64,000 nt of DNA, taken from positions 1 to 64,000 of the forward strand of contig NZ_LMQC01000007.1 of assembly GCF_001424485.1 (NCBI RefSeq). The letters are read 5' to 3'. A program made the position numbers and the translations under genes. The DNA is from Modestobacter sp. Leaf380. GTDB lineage: Bacteria; Actinomycetota; Actinomycetes; Mycobacteriales; Geodermatophilaceae. The notes below the pieces were generated by a model. It had not been told where the DNA came from, did no database searches, and worked only from the letters and a program-made list of their open reading frames with translations. Every line of letters starts with the position of its first letter. The first letter of the stretch is position 1. Of this stretch, positions 56,912 through 63,589 are shown piece after piece.

Positions 56912-57234
56912 CTACTCGATGTCGGGAAGTACGAGACGCATGTCGAAGGTCGGCCGGTACTGGGCTTGGTCGTCGAGTTCGATGCAACCCATGTTCCCGA
57001 GCGCGCCGAGCGGGAGTTTCTCCTGCTGACCGACGTTGCGGTGGAACACCGGCTCGCTGTTTGGTGATGCGCCGGAGGGTGTGGGCCTGCGATGCCTTGA
57101 GGCCGGAGGTCGTGGTCTGGAGCCGACCGATGGCCTGGCCCAGCGACTTTGCTGAGTCTTCCAGGAGTTCGAGGACCGCGCCTAAGGGGCCGAGGCTGCG
57201 ATCTTGCTGCTGCAGCAGGACATGAGCCCGCGCT
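56912..57234 (-). pseudogene. Decayed minus-strand gene fragment
   Basis: On the minus strand an open frame reads HVLLQQQDRSLGPLGAVLEL then LEDSAKSLGQAIGRLQTTTSG and LKASQAHTLRRITK, a helical region. About 57075-57090 the coding signal shifts to another frame reading PNSEPVFHRNVGQQEKLPLG, ALGNMGCIELDDQAQYRPTF and DMRLVLPDIE, ending in TAG at 56912. Both parts use GC3-rich codons. They look like one gene's C-terminus broken by a frameshift. I do not recognise the family. The right limit, where the plus-strand remnant begins, is uncertain. Confidence 0.4.
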
Positions 57235-58241
57235 CCGACGCGCCTCGCATCCTCTTCCCGCGTCTGGACAAGCAGATCCAGCCGCAGCCGTTCACTCTGT
57301 CTGACGTTGCCGATGACGACGCCCGCCTCGGTGGCCTGAACTATCGGTCGGAGATCGCCAGCCCGCTCGACCGGGTCGGTCTCGTCGCTGAGCGCCGCGG
57401 CGAGGTCATCGACGTCACCCCGCGCAAACAGGCCGAAGACATCGCCGCCAGCCAGGAGATGCTGCCGGTCATCGACCTCATCACCGAGATGACCGGCCGA
57501 GTCCTCGGAAGCGGACTCGTCATCCCCGAGACGAAAGAAAAGAACGCCGTCCGCCGCCTCACCCGGGCGTTCCTTGCGGGGGCCGGAGTGGACGACCCTG
57601 AGACGGCCGAGTGGTCACAGCGCCGCGTCCAGGCCGCCACTGACGCGTTCCTTCACCTGGCCCGGGAGAAGCACAAGAACCGGCCTAGCGGCATTGTCGA
57701 AAAGATCGAGCCGATCGGCTACCCGCCGAGCACCCTGCCGTCGATCACCGAAACCCTCGACCGGTACACCGTCAAGAACGCGGCCACCTTCGTCCCCGGC
57801 AAGCCCTACACCGGCTGGACCAAGAGCATCCTGCCCGCCGCCGCCTTCGACGCCTACAGCACCGAGTACCGGCTCGCCGACCTCCTCGACTCCGCCCCCG
57901 AGATCACCTGGTGGGTCCGCGTCCTGCCCAACTACGGCGCCTACCTCAACTACGGCGCCAACCAGCGCTACATCCCAGACTTCATCGCCGTCGCCATCGC
58001 CATCGCCATCGCCATCGCCATCGACATAGACGGCATTCACTGGCTCATCGAAGGCAAGGCCGACGTCCGCGCCAGTGACAGGGACGTCCTCGCGAAAAAG
58101 GAAACAGCCGAACGCTGGGTCCGGCACGTCAACGACAGTGGTGAAGTCGATGCCGAATGGCGATACCTGTTCGCCACCGAGACCAACGTCAAGCACGCCG
58201 CCGGATCATGGACCGGACTTCGGCAGGTGACCGGCTCGTGA
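57222..58241 (+). pseudogene. C-terminal remnant of a DEAD/DEAH helicase-nuclease (type III restriction Res-like)
   Basis: The roughly 340 residues resemble only the C-terminal part of a Res-type helicase. The end carries a PD-(D/E)xK-like nuclease: YIPDF, then WLIEGKAD, with KKETAERW after it. No Walker A, DEAD box or motif VI remains, whereas full-length relatives exceed 800 residues. ATG 57222 (AGGA upstream) or TTG 57204 could start it, so a truncated protein may be made. The helicase part is missing where the minus-strand remnant abuts. A hexanucleotide repeat interrupts the nuclease core. Confidence 0.6.
57993..58022. repeat. GCCATC hexanucleotide microsatellite inside the nuclease motif
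   Basis: Five perfect tandem GCCATC copies encode Ala-Ile dipeptides between PDF and ExK of the preceding remnant. Being a multiple of three, copy-number changes keep the frame. Confidence 0.9.
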
Positions 58242-58272: not shown

Positions 58273-58836
58273 ATGCGAACTCGGCGACAGCGGATGACCG
58301 CTACACCGCCATGTACGCCAGCCACGAGCGGCGAGTCCGACGCCTTCACGGTTCAGGCCCGCTGGCTGTTGGAGTGGCACAACAAGCGCAACGACGGCTT
58401 TTCCACCCGCTCGGTCGCCATCCTCGGCTTCGCCGGCGTCATTCTCGCCTTGCTGCCCCGAGGTCTCGACCTCACCGGTCCCCTGGAGATGACCGGGGGT
58501 ATCCGGGCCTGCCTTATCGCGACCGCCGGATTCCTGCTCCTGACCGCGACGTTCTGCCTCCTCGTGCTGGCCCCGCAGAAGTCGAATGCCCCGAGTATCC
58601 GGCACCTGCGTGAGCAGTGGCGCAAGTACATCGACGCTAAGGACGGCCCGCCGCCGCAAGCGCAGATCACCGAGGGGCTCCTCCATGGCCAGTCAGTGGA
58701 AGCGAGCAGTCCACTCGACCTGGTGTTCCGCGAGGCGAACCGGCGGGGCCGATGGTTCGCCGTCGCCGTTCTGTCGCTGGGCGCGGCCCTCTTCAGCCTC
58801 GCCGCGCTGGTCGTACAGGTCTTCTGGCAGATGTGA
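58273..58836 (+). CDS. Three-helix membrane protein of defence-effector style
   Basis: The 187-residue protein has a short helix (FTVQARWLLEWHNKRNDGFSTR), two adjacent membrane helices (SVAILGFAGVILALLPRGL; ACLIATAGFLLLTATFCLLVL), a soluble helical stretch of about 60 residues and a third membrane helix (WFAVAVLSLGAALFSLAALVVQVFW). This layout is reminiscent of Pycsar/SLATT-type membrane effectors, but no specific family is claimed. ATG 58294 would shorten it by 7 residues. It lies 31 nt after the helicase remnant. Confidence 0.65.
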   Translation: MRTRRQRMTATPPCTPATSGESDAFTVQARWLLEWHNKRNDGFSTRSVAILGFAGVILALLPRGLDLTGPLEMTGGIRACLIATAGFLLLTATFCLLVLAPQKSNAPSIRHLREQWRKYIDAKDGPPPQAQITEGLLHGQSVEASSPLDLVFREANRRGRWFAVAVLSLGAALFSLAALVVQVFWQM

Positions 58837-59134: not shown

Positions 59135-59623
59135 ATGGCTCGATCGTCGTTCGTCAGTTTCCACTACCAGAACGATTACTGGCGGGTCCAGCAAATCCTG
59201 CGGATGGGCGCCGTCGAAGGGCAGGAGATCCTGCCCGCCCAGAACTGGGAAGCCGTGAAGGCGCGCGGTCGCCAGGCCGTCCAGGACTGGATTGACAAGG
59301 AGATGTCCTACAAGGGCGCTGTCGTCGTCCTCATCGGTTCCCAGACCGCGTCCCGCGAGTGGGTGAAGTATGAGATCAAGAAGGCATGGGCATCCCGGAA
59401 GCCGCTCCTCGGGATCAACATCCACGGACTCAAGGACAAGGACGGGTACACCTCTACCGCCGGAGCAAACCCCTTCTCCCAGTTCGGCTTCAGCGACAGC
59501 AACAAGACCTACGCCGACTACGTGCCGGTCAACAACCCGACGGGCTATGACAGCACCCAGGTCTACGCCAGCATCAAGAACAACATCGAGTCGTGGATCG
59601 CCAGCGGCTACAAGCGGCCCTGA
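59135..59623 (+). CDS. TIR-like (MTH538/ThsB-type) protein
   Basis: The 162-residue single-domain protein begins MARSSFVSFHYQNDYWRVQQ and contains VVVLIGSQTASREWVKYEIK (about 63-82), then LLGINIHGLKDKDGY and ANPF. From memory this runs parallel to Bacillus ThsB of Thoeris; E80 in WVKYEI falls where ThsB has its essential E85. ThsB proteins turn NAD+ into cyclic-ADP-ribose-type signals on phage infection. ATG 59135 has AGAGGGGC upstream. It is first in a tight operon (HIT 3 nt later). No ThsA (SIR2-SLOG or macro-TM) is nearby. The signal product is unproven. Confidence 0.88.
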   Translation: MARSSFVSFHYQNDYWRVQQILRMGAVEGQEILPAQNWEAVKARGRQAVQDWIDKEMSYKGAVVVLIGSQTASREWVKYEIKKAWASRKPLLGINIHGLKDKDGYTSTAGANPFSQFGFSDSNKTYADYVPVNNPTGYDSTQVYASIKNNIESWIASGYKRP

Positions 59624-59625
59624 CA

Positions 59626-60078
59626 ATGCGCGCCGACCCCGACTGCGACTTCTGCCAGATCGTCACCCATGAGGAACCAGCCCGCGAGGTCCTCCGGACG
59701 GGCAAGGTAGTCGCGTTCTTCCCGCTAGAACCGGCCACCCTCGGGCACACCATGATCATTCCTCGCGAGCACATCCCCGACATCTGGTCACTCGACGACC
59801 AGACCGCCCGCGACCTGGCCGACGCCACCCTGCGCGTCGCCCGCGCCATCCGAGCGGCTGTCCCATTGGACGGTCTCAACATCATCCAGTCCAACGGCGA
59901 GGCAGCCACACAGAGCGTCTTCCACCTGCATGTACACGTCGTTCCCCGCCGTACCGACGACGCGATGGGTCCCATCTGGCCAGCAGAAACCCACTGGAGC
60001 GAGAAGAACAAAAGCGACGCTCAAGGCAGAATCCGCGCCGCCCTCGCCCTGGGTGCAGGGGAAGAAGGCTCCCCATGA
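59626..60078 (+). CDS. HIT family nucleotide hydrolase/transferase
   Basis: The 150-residue protein has an intact histidine triad HLHVHVVPR and the N-terminal CDFCQIV with LRTGKVVAFFPLEPATLGHTMIIPREHI. HIT proteins cleave or transfer nucleotidyl groups on substrates such as AppppA, ApppA or AMP conjugates. It lies 2 nt after the TIR stop and overlaps the next ATG by 4 nt. In this operon it may process or remove the TIR-made nucleotide; that is inference. It could be a captured housekeeping gene. Confidence 0.9.
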   Translation: MRADPDCDFCQIVTHEEPAREVLRTGKVVAFFPLEPATLGHTMIIPREHIPDIWSLDDQTARDLADATLRVARAIRAAVPLDGLNIIQSNGEAATQSVFHLHVHVVPRRTDDAMGPIWPAETHWSEKNKSDAQGRIRAALALGAGEEGSP

Positions 60079-60506
60079 GCAGCAGCCCCGTCGCTCGGGC
60101 TTCCGATCCCGAGGACCGCAGGAAGCATCTGGACTACGTCCAAGCGGTCATTGCCCGACTCTCGCAATCTTCAGCGACTGCCAAAGGCTGGAGCCTTACT
60201 ATCGCCGGAGCCGCTTTCGGGTTCTCCGCAGTCATCGAGCGCTGGTACCTCGCACTCCTGGGCTTGGCCATCATCATCTCGTTCTCGATCCTCGACATGT
60301 ATTACCTCTACGAGGAACGCCTGTTCCGGTGCCTCTACAACGGCGTCGTTGCCGGAACCGTCCCGTCGTACTCCATGGACAAGAACGTGTTCAAGGACCA
60401 AGCGTCCAGGCTGGACACCTACACGTCCTGGTCAGTCCTCGGGTTCTACGCCCCGCTTACGGTCGCCGGGACCGCCGTCACCGGAATCTCAGTCCTGACC
60501 GGATGA
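60075..60506 (+). CDS. Three-helix membrane protein, candidate effector of the TIR operon
   Basis: The 143-residue protein starts with a soluble helix (DRRKHLDYVQAVIARLSQSSATAKGWS). A membrane hairpin follows (LTIAGAAFGFSAVI; WYLALLGLAIIISFSILDMYYLYEERLFRCLY), then a loop with SYSMDKN and a last helix (SWSVLGFYAPLTVAGTAVTGISVL). The KGWS...LDMYYLYEERLFR pattern is familiar to me from membrane proteins encoded beside TIR-like genes in defence islands. The ATG overlaps the HIT stop (ATGA). A membrane-disrupting effector triggered by a TIR product is the working idea. Confidence 0.75.
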   Translation: MSSSPVARASDPEDRRKHLDYVQAVIARLSQSSATAKGWSLTIAGAAFGFSAVIERWYLALLGLAIIISFSILDMYYLYEERLFRCLYNGVVAGTVPSYSMDKNVFKDQASRLDTYTSWSVLGFYAPLTVAGTAVTGISVLTG

Positions 60507-60518
60507 CCGGAAGCGGCG

Positions 60519-60857
60519 ATGATCCCTGACGCCTACACGCTCACATTCCTGCTCGTACTCGCCGAGTTCAACTCCGACGACGGGCATCACTCCATCATGT
60601 GGATGGATGAGGAAAGCGCCGAATACTGGGAGGCGCCGTACGCGGGTGCATGCTGGCCGTGCAAACGGGTCCGTGACGACGCGGTCTACCGGGGCCGCCC
60701 GGTCCCTGGCATGACCGTCCCAGAGGCGCACGCGATTCCCTACTGGCGTCCCGTGCACGACGGAGCCGACGCTGTCGCCTTTCTCCGCGAGCACAGCGGC
60801 TGTGGAGAAACCCCGCCGGCGCTGCGGTCGAGCGGGAGTGTTGGTGACGCGCCGTAG
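60519..60857 (+). CDS. Unknown protein at the end of the TIR operon
   Basis: The 112-residue protein starts at ATG 60519, 12 nt after the membrane gene, with GGAAG upstream. It is rich in Trp, Tyr, His and acidic residues, with two Cys in GACWPCKRV and no membrane helix. The tail after residue 90 (HSGCGETPPALRSSGSVGDAP) may be disordered. I recognise no family. Its spacing suggests co-transcription with the TIR, HIT and membrane genes. Confidence 0.5.
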   Translation: MIPDAYTLTFLLVLAEFNSDDGHHSIMWMDEESAEYWEAPYAGACWPCKRVRDDAVYRGRPVPGMTVPEAHAIPYWRPVHDGADAVAFLREHSGCGETPPALRSSGSVGDAP

Positions 60858-61134: not shown

Positions 61135-62439
61135 TCAGTCGGCGAGTTGCCACTGAAGAATGATCTCCTCGGCATCGAGCGATGATGTGACCCCCGCCTG
61201 ATTGACCGCGTCCCGCACCAGGTCCAGCCAAGTGGTCAACGCCTGATCACGGCCGCCGTCAACCAAGACGGGTCCGTCCACCGGTGCATAGCCGAGCACC
61301 CGGTGCGATTCGTCGAAGGGCAGGAACTCGTTGATATGCGGGTCGAGCCGCCGGAACACTTGCGTCGAAGGCTCGACGGCGATTCGTGCGCTGTAGTCAC
61401 CGGTGACGCCAAGTGCCGTTCTCGCGGTCCAGAGCAACGCGAAGAACTCAAGGCCGGTCTGCTCGATGTCGGCGAGGGCGACTTCGCCCCGCTGCGTCTC
61501 GCCGCGAAAGAATCCGTCCCGGGTGAATGCCATCGCGACGGTTCCGTCGCCGTGAACCTCGACCCGAGCCCGCGGAGTAGCGCCGCCTGCCTGGGAGACC
61601 GGCTGACGACCGAAGCGGTAATACCGCTGAAGTCCACGGCGGGTGACCTCATTGCCAGTAAGCAACCTCGGACCCATCTTCTGACCCACCGGCCAACGCC
61701 AAGCCCGCTCGATGATCCGGTTAGCCCGGTCCAACCGCAGGTCCCGTGGCCGGTGAAGCGGCGTCTCCGGCACCGCCATCGCCACGATCCAGTTCACCCC
61801 CTCGGCGACGCCACATGAAGCGACGAACCGGTCAAATCGATCGTTGAAGTTCTCCCGCCGCTTTCGGTGTCCCGCCTCACGGGCCCGGTAGGCGTCCGCG
61901 ATCTGCCGCTCGACCATCCATTCGGTGTCCGGCCCATGTCGGTAAGGGACGCCGAACCAGTCGTCGGTGTTCCTCGGGTGGACAAGGTGAGGCGCATCCG
62001 GGCTGTCCGGAACAAGGAGAATCAGGACGCCCTGCTCAGGGTCGTCTGCCGGGGCAAGTGGCCGCAGATCCAGGCCAGTGACCGGCGGATAGATCAGGTT
62101 CCCGGCGACCTGACGAATCGAGCGGGACGTGCCCTCATCCACCGGACCCGCAGGGACCACATGGTCCGCAGCCGAGGTTCCCTCAATCCGAGCCTCCGCT
62201 ACGCCGTAAACAATCATCCCGCCGCCGCTGTTCGCCATCGCCGCGATGTCCTTGGCCAGTTCAGCCTGCTGGGCCACCTTCTTCTGCTTGTCCTCCGACG
62301 TGGCGGTTAGAGGGAGTTGCTGCTTCCAATCCAGATCGGCGCGCTCGGTCACCCGGTTCTCGCAGGCCCGCTCGATCAGCCCGAAGTCCAGCGTGGTCCC
62401 GACATCTCCCAATGCGGCGTGCAGCGGCGTCCGTGGCAT
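61135..62439 (-). CDS. Schlafen AlbA_2 domain protein
   Basis: The 434-residue protein has an N-terminal AlbA_2 domain (about 18-170). ERADLDWKQQLPL gives the acidic E-x-LDxK signature; AKDIAAMANSGGGMIVYGVAE is the glycine-rich strand-loop; HPRNTDDWFGVPYRHG follows. The remaining 260 residues are unique to me. AlbA_2/Schlafen-type domains occur in RNA- or DNA-targeting proteins and in many defence loci. It starts at an ATG and is divergent from the MBL gene. Codon use is less GC-biased than in the core chromosome. Confidence 0.8.
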   Translation of the reverse strand: MPRTPLHAALGDVGTTLDFGLIERACENRVTERADLDWKQQLPLTATSEDKQKKVAQQAELAKDIAAMANSGGGMIVYGVAEARIEGTSAADHVVPAGPVDEGTSRSIRQVAGNLIYPPVTGLDLRPLAPADDPEQGVLILLVPDSPDAPHLVHPRNTDDWFGVPYRHGPDTEWMVERQIADAYRAREAGHRKRRENFNDRFDRFVASCGVAEGVNWIVAMAVPETPLHRPRDLRLDRANRIIERAWRWPVGQKMGPRLLTGNEVTRRGLQRYYRFGRQPVSQAGGATPRARVEVHGDGTVAMAFTRDGFFRGETQRGEVALADIEQTGLEFFALLWTARTALGVTGDYSARIAVEPSTQVFRRLDPHINEFLPFDESHRVLGYAPVDGPVLVDGGRDQALTTWLDLVRDAVNQAGVTSSLDAEEIILQWQLAD

Positions 62440-62522
62440 GAGGGCACGGTAGGGCCCGCGCCGACGTCAGCCCGACCTTGAGGCGAGTCGCTGTCCTCCA
62501 CCTTCCCCGAAAGGGCCGCCAA

Positions 62523-62545
62523 CTGTCAGTACCCGCCGCTACGGT
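62523..62545 (+). promoter_or_regulatory. RecA-NDp/PafBC-type promoter of the MBL gene
   Basis: CTGTCAGTACC, exactly six bases, then TACGGT. Against TTGTCRGTGGC-N6-TAGGGT this is 8 of 11 plus 5 of 6. The -10 ends 36 bp before the MBL ATG. Confidence 0.6.
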
Positions 62546-62581
62546 CCTGGCTGGGGCACCATCCAACGGCGAGGAGACGCA

Positions 62582-63589
62582 ATGATCGACATCGACTTCC
62601 TGTGGGTCGGGGAGAAGCAGAAGACAGGGGACGCCATCACCTGTCAGTTCACCGACCCCTCCACGGGGCAGGACGTCGTAATCGTGATCGACGGAGGGTT
62701 CGCTGACGACGGCTCACGCATCGCCAGCCACGTCCGCAGGTACTACGGAACAGACCGGGTCGACCTGGTGATCTGCACCCATCCCGATGACGACCACATC
62801 CGCGGGCTGTTCGGCGTGATTGAGGAACTAGACGTTGCCCGCCTCCTCATCCACCGACCCTCGGCCTACGGTTACACCGGGGACGACGTCAAAGCCACCC
62901 TTGTCGATGACCTCATCGCCACCGCGCGCGGATGCGGAACCGCAGTCGATCACGGTTTCGCGGGGACGACCTACTTCGGTGGGGCACTGACGATCGCTGG
63001 ACCGTCGGAGTCCTACTACCGGCAACTGCTGGAGGAGCAGGTCCAATACGGCAGTCTGACCGCGTCCATCGGCCGTGCGTTCTCCAAGGCCGCGAGCAGC
63101 GTCATGGAGGCCATTCGCAGCCTCGTGAGCGACCCGGGCGAAACGATGACCGACGACAATGGTGGAACCACGCCCCGCAACAACAGCAGCGTCATTACGA
63201 ACCTGGCCGTCGATGGATACCGAGCACTGTTCACCGGGGACGCAGGGGTGCCCGCCCTCAACCAAGCGGCCGACCACCTCGACCTCGCAGGAAAGTCAGC
63301 CACCATCGACTTCTTGGACGTCCCCCACCACGGTTCCCGGCACAACCTTGACCCACAGACGCTGGACCGACTCCTAGGGCCAATCGTCGGGGACCTCCAG
63401 TACGGCTCCGCGTTCGTCTCCGTAGGCAAGGAGGCTGACGACTTCCCGCGGCCCGAGGTGGCAAACGCCATCAGACGCCGCGGATACCCGGTGTCCGCAA
63501 CTCGGGGACAGAGCATCAGGTGGAACCGCGGCGGCTACCTGAGACCGGACTACAGCGCTCTCACGCCGATCGGCTGGCTCGCCGAGTGA
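62582..63589 (+). CDS. Metallo-beta-lactamase-fold hydrolase (ComEC/Rec2-like)
   Basis: The 335-residue protein has the metal motif THPDDDH (about 61-67), IDGGFADDG, NNSSVITNL, LFTGDAG and VPHHGSRHN, the ComEC-type MBL series. There is no membrane part, so it is a soluble hydrolase. Such proteins recur in defence islands, for example as the MBL subunit of some AVAST systems. ATG 62582 has GGCGAGGAG upstream. It is followed 10 nt later by a membrane-protein gene. Confidence 0.88.
   Translation: MIDIDFLWVGEKQKTGDAITCQFTDPSTGQDVVIVIDGGFADDGSRIASHVRRYYGTDRVDLVICTHPDDDHIRGLFGVIEELDVARLLIHRPSAYGYTGDDVKATLVDDLIATARGCGTAVDHGFAGTTYFGGALTIAGPSESYYRQLLEEQVQYGSLTASIGRAFSKAASSVMEAIRSLVSDPGETMTDDNGGTTPRNNSSVITNLAVDGYRALFTGDAGVPALNQAADHLDLAGKSATIDFLDVPHHGSRHNLDPQTLDRLLGPIVGDLQYGSAFVSVGKEADDFPRPEVANAIRRRGYPVSATRGQSIRWNRGGYLRPDYSALTPIGWLAE

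What the first reader, a model, noticed from the sequence alone, without database searches (positions are those of the whole stretch)
59135..60857. Candidate new TIR-signalling defence operon: TIR-like + HIT hydrolase + three-helix membrane protein + unknown
Four genes are packed with 2-nt, -4-nt and 12-nt junctions. The first is a ThsB-type TIR protein with the conserved E80, but no ThsA (SIR2-SLOG or macro-TM) is within reach. In its place is a small membrane protein whose topology suits pore formation or membrane disruption, and a HIT hydrolase that could cleave or tune the nucleotide signal. This would be a Thoeris-like circuit with a different effector and a built-in signal-processing enzyme. 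Gene order and motifs are seen; the circuit is inferred.
Basis: partly seen in the sequence, partly recalled or inferred. Interest (0 to 1): 0.88.

Follow-up and report, generated by a model that had tools for sequence, protein, structure and literature searches.

The report
TIR, HIT and membrane-protein defence operon
A three-gene bacterial cassette (a probable signal-making TIR enzyme, a nucleotide-handling HIT enzyme and a three-helix membrane protein, sometimes with the last two fused) recurs on chromosomes and plasmids and looks like a Thoeris-type anti-phage alarm with a different weapon; it is predicted and untested.

Summary
In detail: TIR (59135-59623), HIT (59626-60078), three-helix membrane protein "TM" (60075-60506) and a lineage-specific gene (60519-60857), with the stated junctions and E80. 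TM+TIR is already a candidate system in PADLOC-DB (PDC-M50A/B), and a HIT gene beside some Thoeris systems was reported in 2021 with an off-switch hypothesis (PMC8565338). The new part is anatomical. TM relatives occur across bacteria and in an archaeon, mostly beside a TIR gene. In a tree of 84, one branch parts 28 rows (27 distinct), all with HIT within 1 kb or fused, from 56 with none; HIT follows the TM clade rather than taxonomy. The HIT motif is intact in 28 of 28 HIT rows, 26 distinct; eight of eight actinobacterial plasmid loci opened carry TIR+HIT+TM. The window's TIR is 51% identical to a ThsB beside a true ThsA, and other relatives sit near phospholipases, so effectors are exchanged around one TIR family. 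Best reading: Thoeris-like TIR signalling to a HIT-TM membrane effector, with HIT binding and cleaving the signal. Signal, pore and the direction of HIT's effect are inferred. New variant of a known kind.

The parts
59135..59623 (+). TIR protein (ThsB-type), 162 aa, with WVKYE80 motif
   Evidence: Pfam PF08937 1.8e-23; PADLOC ThsB 1.7e-59 and PDC-M50B 3.9e-52; best PDB match 8wcf 8e-37, ThsB 6lhy/9b7d 9e-15
59626..60078 (+). HIT hydrolase/transferase, 150 aa, HLHVHVVPR intact
   Evidence: Pfam PF01230 2.5e-21; motif intact in 28 of 28 operon HIT rows, 26 distinct; one cluster, modestly supported, apart from 12 HITs elsewhere in four genomes
60075..60506 (+). PDC-M50A membrane protein, 143 aa, three long helices; invariant H18, L19, Q23, W39, D74, E81
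   Evidence: PADLOC PDC-M50A 3.8e-26; 75 of 75 aligned relatives match; AlphaFold2 pLDDT 91.4; invariants over 75 rows
60519..60857 (+). 112-aa protein of unknown function; accessory, lineage-restricted
   Evidence: homologues only in L014, L015, L016 among the loci then held; no Pfam or PADLOC match

Best explanation
A Thoeris-like defence module. Infection activates the ThsB-type TIR, which turns NAD+ into an ADP-ribose-derived signal. The signal acts on a membrane effector made of the three-helix PDC-M50A protein and its dedicated HIT partner. PDC-M50A has a conserved helical hairpin beyond the membrane spans (H18, Q23, R28 on one helix; D74, E81, R85 on the other) that I take to be cytoplasmic and to bind the signal or relay it; once engaged, it permeabilises or depolarises the membrane and stops phage growth. 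HIT binds and cleaves the signal at the effector, as a built-in eraser or timer. Shown: gene order, conserved linkage, HIT-TM fusion, clade-wide HIT association, motifs, predicted three-helix model. Inferred: NAD+ chemistry, signal, ligand site, pore, phage defence, direction of the HIT effect.
For: ThsB identity, and 51% identity to a ThsB beside a SIR2-STALD ThsA. Of 8 plasmid relatives of this TIR opened (60 listed, 62 records), 2 sit with ThsA, 2 near CBASS-type phospholipases, 1 beside PDC-M50A and 3 beside other TIR genes: effectors exchange around one TIR family. In the class sample, ThsA_Macro sits by ThsB in 3 genomes, none of them a PDC-M50A genome. TIR within 1 kb of TM in 57 of 78 distinct loci by my HMM; in 9 of the other 21 an adjacent gene matches a TIR model, in 1 more by eye only. 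All 28 clade-A TM rows have HIT within 1 kb or fused, 0 of 56 clade-B rows (support 100/97). HxHxHxxPR in 28 of 28 HIT rows. HIT fused to TM in five tree rows, one origin, and in four of eight plasmid loci. Restriction-modification, DISARM drmD, helicase or GIY-YIG genes lie next to six of those eight loci. Patchy and mobile: 5 of 394 genomes; 112 plasmid records, 67 predicted conjugative.
Against: No experiment. Clade-B TMs have TIR and no HIT, so the effector family does not need HIT in general. Nine of 28 clade-A rows have no ThsB-type TIR within 1 kb. Of these nine, L021, L024, L039 and G721 have a clear TIR_2 protein within about 5 kb, L037 a weak one below Pfam's cut-off, and L030's lies near another trio; for L017, L029 and L042 I found none in the genes scanned. 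In the phylum sample only 3 of 7 TM genomes carry HIT. Twelve of 20 HIT-linked TIR rows do form one group, so TIR exchange is partial. Two of eight actinobacterial plasmid loci show no other defence gene nearby. The TM has no recognised ligand domain and no convincing fold match. The fusion model's pTM of 0.70 does not fix how HIT and TM sit together.
Confidence: 0.55

Rival explanations
1. HIT is a second-step synthase, not an eraser: TIR makes a precursor (for example an ADP-ribose conjugate) and HIT transfers or trims it into the ligand that opens PDC-M50A.
For: HIT is present at every clade-A TM row and fused to it in one lineage; HIT enzymes include nucleotidyl transferases (general knowledge); clade A and clade B differ at positions fixed in clade B, such as F34 and W71 (52 of 52 rows), as if tuned to different ligands.
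Against: The six invariant residues are the same in both clades; HIT stays while the TIR partner varies among subfamilies, which fits a regulator of TM better than a step in one pathway.
Confidence: 0.2
2. HIT-TM is a toxin-antitoxin-like pair: TM is constitutively harmful and HIT restrains it, by binding or by removing a nucleotide that is always present; the TIR product or NAD+ loss releases it.
For: HIT is present at every clade-A TM row, also where no ThsB is near; HIT and TM are convergent in many loci and fused in others.
Against: A fused antitoxin is unusual (general knowledge); the catalytic triad is kept in 28 of 28 rows; clade-B TMs have no such partner.
Confidence: 0.15
3. The TIR is itself the killer (NADase) and TM (with HIT) is the sensor or membrane anchor that activates it.
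For: TM occurs with many TIR subfamilies, including CAP12-type TIRs and a large LRR-Roc-COR-TIR protein, as a common sensor might.
Against: The window's TIR belongs to the single-domain ThsB kind, several of whose relatives stand beside separate effectors.
Confidence: 0.12
4. The cassette is not for defence but a general membrane or nucleotide signalling unit.
For: No phage challenge has been run; PDC status is only 'candidate'.
Against: Patchy spread, plasmids, neighbourhood, ThsB kinship.
Confidence: 0.05

Closest known systems
PDC-M50 (PDC-M50A + PDC-M50B), candidate system in PADLOC-DB 2.0.0
   Same: Both gene products match: TM to PDC-M50A (3.8e-26), TIR to PDC-M50B (3.9e-52), one gene apart
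   Different: Adds a dedicated HIT enzyme, fused to TM in one lineage; the HIT matched no PDC-M50 model. No paper in the held library names PDC-M50
Thoeris type I (ThsA SIR2-SLOG + ThsB)
   Same: ThsB-type TIR; 51% identity to a ThsB beside a ThsA of Cereibacter
   Different: No linked ThsA found; membrane protein instead
Thoeris type II with macro-TM ThsA (PMC11204291, passages read)
   Same: TIR signalling to a membrane effector, as proposed here
   Different: PDC-M50A matched no macro or ThsA model; three long helices predicted
PADLOC 'Thoeris type II' with HIT protein ThsC (PMC8565338, passages read)
   Same: HIT with ThsB; off-switch idea already proposed there
   Different: Described there as an addition to Thoeris systems; the operon HIT scores no better against ThsC (63 bits) than a HIT elsewhere in G712 (66 bits)
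TIR + 2TM SLATT pairs (predicted; PMC9503650, passages read)
   Same: TIR beside a small membrane protein thought to respond to ADP-ribose derivatives
   Different: No SLATT model matched P0002 at E<=1; three helices; fold relation untested

Membership tests
PDC-M50 (PADLOC-DB) | PDC-M50A membrane protein | tested here: met
   75 of 75 relatives
PDC-M50 (PADLOC-DB) | PDC-M50B TIR in the same operon | tested here: met
   (one HIT gene between them)
Thoeris | ThsB-type TIR with catalytic Glu | tested here: met
   that E80 is catalytic is recalled knowledge of TIRs
Thoeris | Linked ThsA effector (SIR2-SLOG or macro-TM) | tested here: not met
   no ThsA model among 8 neighbours; PF20016 none in own genome; PF18185 search uninformative
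Thoeris | NAD+-derived signal made on infection | not testable with these tools
   needs biochemistry
PADLOC Thoeris with ThsC (HIT) | HIT protein of the ThsC family | tested here: inconclusive
   63 bits, but a HIT gene elsewhere in G712 scores 66
SLATT effectors | SLATT domain by sequence | tested here: inconclusive
   none for P0002 at E<=1; not among the 25 of 47 families shown for 75 relatives
8xMP octameric membrane proteins (PF24838) | match to the family profile | tested here: inconclusive
   6 of 75 members, best E 4.8e-4; not P0002 itself
anti-phage systems | protection against phage | not testable with these tools
   no assay

The most novel reading that the evidence does not exclude
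HIT is the dedicated nucleotide-handling subunit of a TIR-activated membrane effector: a receptor-side enzyme, in one lineage a domain of the same polypeptide, that binds and cleaves the alarm molecule and so times or gates membrane damage. This would be a Thoeris subtype with its own effector (PDC-M50A) and a signal eraser built into the effector.
Probability: 0.42. Interest if true: 0.8.

Novelty: new variant of a known kind. Interest (0 to 1): 0.6.

Why it matters
If true, one ThsB-type TIR family feeds several effector kinds (SIR2 ThsA, phospholipase, PDC-M50A, HIT with PDC-M50A), and bacterial immunity has an effector with its own signal-cleaving enzyme. It gives an immediate biochemical question: which TIR product does the HIT bind or cleave? 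It also gives a natural set of fused, split and HIT-less versions to test it on. PDC-M50A relatives are found in 112 plasmid records, 38 of them Klebsiella and 31 Escherichia, and 67 of the 112 are predicted conjugative, so the effector family is widespread.

Tried and rejected
Considered and rejected: the trio as a chance neighbourhood (rejected); the fourth gene as a core part; HIT as simply the known ThsC (a HIT gene elsewhere in G712 scores as well); HIT presence as a mere taxonomic habit (Ramlibacter, Pseudomonadota, has HIT inside clade A; an Actinomycetota MAG, L062, has none inside clade B).

Led nowhere: Foldseek and VIA-align for the TM model gave no significant match, only helical bundles (best VIA Z 10.4, which the tool calls common for helical proteins). 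PF18185 rang nowhere. Phage records had no match. Sequence search of the PDB with the TM profile found nothing. The fusion model has pTM 0.70 and no coordinates I could inspect. I first called nine clade-A rows 'HIT only, TIR-free'; later looks found TIR_2 proteins near L021, L024, L039 and G721, and a weak one near L037, so that label is too strong. L066 was counted with a TIR by eye only; Pfam and PADLOC did not confirm it. Paper searches for a printed description listed none that I could tie to TIR+HIT+PDC-M50A; Wang et al. 2024 (PMC11350192; 12 E. coli TIR systems, seen only as cited in PMC12847820) is not held and may include a PDC-M50 pair.

Rows dropped or partial: the search for related loci kept the best 80 of 217 relatives, so rows nearest the query are favoured; two duplicate loci (L016, L019) were dropped from 80; many contigs end close to the TM, so absence of a neighbour is a lower bound. 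The TM tree has 84 rows, of which L018 and L096 are identical; its 53 'TIR' rows in clade B include ten relabelled by eye or model, L066 doubtful among them; L006, L011 and the fragment L013 (phylum sample, no HIT found) were not put in it. In the HIT tree L016, L019, L027, L096 and L119 were left out; in the TIR tree L012, L016, L019, L027 and rows with E above 1e-20 or under 120 aa.

Full report
What is there. The four genes lie as described: TIR 59135-59623, HIT 59626-60078, membrane protein (TM) 60075-60506, unknown 60519-60857, with junctions of +2, -4 and +12 nt. The TIR matches ThsB_TIR (1.8e-23) and HIT matches PF01230 (2.5e-21); the other two have no match above a curated cut-off. PADLOC-DB models identify the TIR as ThsB (1.7e-59) and PDC-M50B (3.9e-52), TM as PDC-M50A (3.8e-26) and HIT as ThsC (5e-18). 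So the TM+TIR pair is already a catalogued candidate, though no paper in the held library names PDC-M50. The genome has 4.76 Mb in 25 contigs; the nearest named relatives are Blastococcus and Klenkia, 90-91% identical in TM, which suggests a member of Geodermatophilaceae.

The membrane protein. An alignment of 75 relatives has six invariant residues (H18, L19, Q23, W39, D74, E81); R28, S33, F70 and R85 are among those nearly so. The six are invariant in both clades. AlphaFold2 gives three long helices with mean pLDDT 91.4. Hydropathy places membrane spans near 36-54, 57-75 and 120-142, leaving the outer parts of helices 1 and 2, where H18, Q23, R28, E81 and R85 lie, outside the membrane; that this hairpin is cytoplasmic and binds a ligand is inference. 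No solved structure matches convincingly and no viral model does.

Conservation. A scan of one genome per species with a TM alignment gave 217 relatives, of which the best 80 were kept. After removing two duplicates, 78 loci split as TIR only 43, TIR+HIT 11, TIR with fused HIT-TM 3, HIT only 8, neither 13, within 1 kb and by my own HMMs. In nine of the 13 an adjacent gene matches a TIR model (L031, L053, L055, L067, L068, L069, L078, L085, L087); L066 looks like one by eye only; in L034, L052 and L054 I saw none. Partners include CAP12-type TIRs in three Neobacillus and an LRR-Roc-COR-TIR protein in Aureivirga. An independent sample with PADLOC's own profile found PDC-M50A in 5 of 394 class genomes and 0 of 14 controls; ThsB_TIR is in 20 of 394; TIR is within 1 kb in 4 of the 5 and HIT adjacent or fused in 5 of 5. 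In a phylum sample, 7 of 396 genomes had TM and 3 of those 7 had HIT.

The HIT follows the TM clade. In a tree of 84 TM rows one well supported branch (100/97) parts 28 rows (27 distinct), all with HIT within 1 kb or fused (14 with TIR, 5 fused with TIR, 9 without ThsB-type TIR within 1 kb), from 56 rows with no HIT (53 labelled with a TIR, 3 with none). Ramlibacter, a proteobacterium, has HIT and lies among the 28; an Actinomycetota MAG (L062) has none and lies among the 56. The fused form has one origin in this tree. Operon HITs keep HxHxHxxPR in 28 of 28 rows, 26 distinct; the HIT beside TM is the best match to the window's HIT in four of four genomes, the window's own included, and operon HITs group apart from 12 other HITs with modest support (78/83; 80% of bootstrap trees). 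TIRs of HIT-bearing loci do not form one group: 12 of 20 rows cluster (90/98) but the rest lie among HIT-less ones (six changes, at least three forced by starred branches). So the TIR has been exchanged in part, while TM and HIT stayed together.

Loci with HIT but no ThsB. ThsB_TIR was absent from 6 of 8 such genomes and weak in the other two; TIR_2 proteins are common there (8 of 9 genomes, the own genome being the one without). In L021 the gene next to HIT on the same strand is a TIR_2 protein (6.5e-15); L039 (7e-12) and L024 (6e-8) have one nearby and L037 a weak one below Pfam's cut-off; in G721 a TIR_2 match lies 4.5 kb from TM inside an ORF with many WD40 repeats. In L017, L029 and L042 I found none, having scanned two to three neighbouring genes each. 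So HIT+TM without any TIR is possible but not proved.

Kinship of the TIR and exchange of effectors. The window's TIR is 51% identical to a TIR on a Cereibacter plasmid that stands directly before a SIR2-STALD ThsA (8e-153) and a second TIR; Phocaeicola shows the same. On Pantoea and E. coli plasmids its relatives stand near CBASS-type phospholipases, on a Ligilactobacillus plasmid beside PDC-M50A, and in Sphingobium, Rhizobium and Roseovarius beside other TIR genes, with no TM found. These are the 8 loci opened of 60 listed; none of the 8 has a HIT by my HMM. Of 21 class genomes searched (20 with ThsB plus G721), 3 have a macro ThsA beside ThsB and none of these has PDC-M50A. The closest solved structure is 8wcf (8e-37), then ThsB 6lhy and 9b7d; a search by entry code found no paper on 8wcf.

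Mobility and context. P0002 finds 112 plasmid records, 67 predicted conjugative, no phage record and 8 IMG/VR contigs, of which 7 carry a TIR near TM and 1 of these also a HIT. Eight of eight actinobacterial plasmid loci opened carry TIR, HIT and TM, four with HIT-TM fused (checked by HMM); six of the eight have restriction-modification, DISARM drmD, helicase or GIY-YIG genes alongside and two do not. Three other plasmid loci opened from the TM search have TM and TIR and no HIT. In the window, GC falls from 0.73-0.75 at 52-54 kb to 0.63-0.67 from about 56 kb on, and neighbours include a type III restriction-like gene, a Schlafen/AlbA_2 protein and an MBL protein of PDC-M48B type.

Mechanism. 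The best-supported chain is: TIR senses infection and makes a nucleotide signal (inferred from ThsB kinship); the signal acts at the PDC-M50A membrane protein (inferred from wide TIR linkage and conserved polar residues); membrane damage stops the phage (inferred); HIT, tied to the effector by adjacency, clade and fusion (shown), with an intact active-site motif (shown), binds and cleaves the signal (inferred; eraser favoured over synthase or restrainer). Payne et al. 2021 already proposed that a HIT protein beside Thoeris might form or degrade the messenger, perhaps as an off-switch (PMC8565338, passages read). TIR-linked 2TM SLATT proteins were predicted to be ADP-ribose-responsive effectors (PMC9503650, passages read). 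Signals for Thoeris types I, II and IV are summarised in PMC12847820 (passages read).

Verdict. Real, conserved and mobile; a new variant of a known kind (Thoeris-like / PDC-M50), with the HIT-effector bond as the new point. No activity has been shown.

Noticed in passing
window 57204-58241: This 345-aa frame aligns with the last 335 or so residues of an 832-839 aa type III restriction-like protein that is one frame in Blastococcus and Klenkia (L014-L016); the window's copy is split. A like gene also stands directly before TIR in Corynebacterium L026 and L033.
   Followed up: partly
window 58273-58836: A further small membrane protein with a weak PycTM match (E 0.028) sits between the restriction-like gene and TIR; not found in the related loci searched.
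   Followed up: partly
window 61135-63589: Schlafen/AlbA_2 protein and MBL protein (PDC-M48B, 8e-59) downstream suggest a defence island.
   Followed up: no
L085:4995-8916: PDC-M50A directly before an 1171-aa LRR-Roc-COR-TIR protein in Aureivirga.
   Followed up: no
L067:4995-6495, also L069 and L087: PDC-M50A beside a CAP12/Pycsar-type TIR in Neobacillus; I did not search for a cyclase nearby.
   Followed up: partly
L143 and L145 (Pantoea and E. coli plasmids): ThsB-type TIR genes followed by a CBASS-type phospholipase; no cyclase annotated in the 5.4-kb stretches (the plasmid gene table is incomplete): possibly a TIR-activated phospholipase.
   Followed up: partly
L108 and the 112 plasmid records: PDC-M50A relatives on 38 Klebsiella and 31 Escherichia plasmid records; the one Klebsiella record opened has TM followed by TIR. 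No Escherichia record of this list was opened.
   Followed up: partly
L020:2198-5393: Two TIR-like genes and a SLOG-cluster3 protein precede a TM that also has convergent HIT and TIR in Humibacillus.
   Followed up: no
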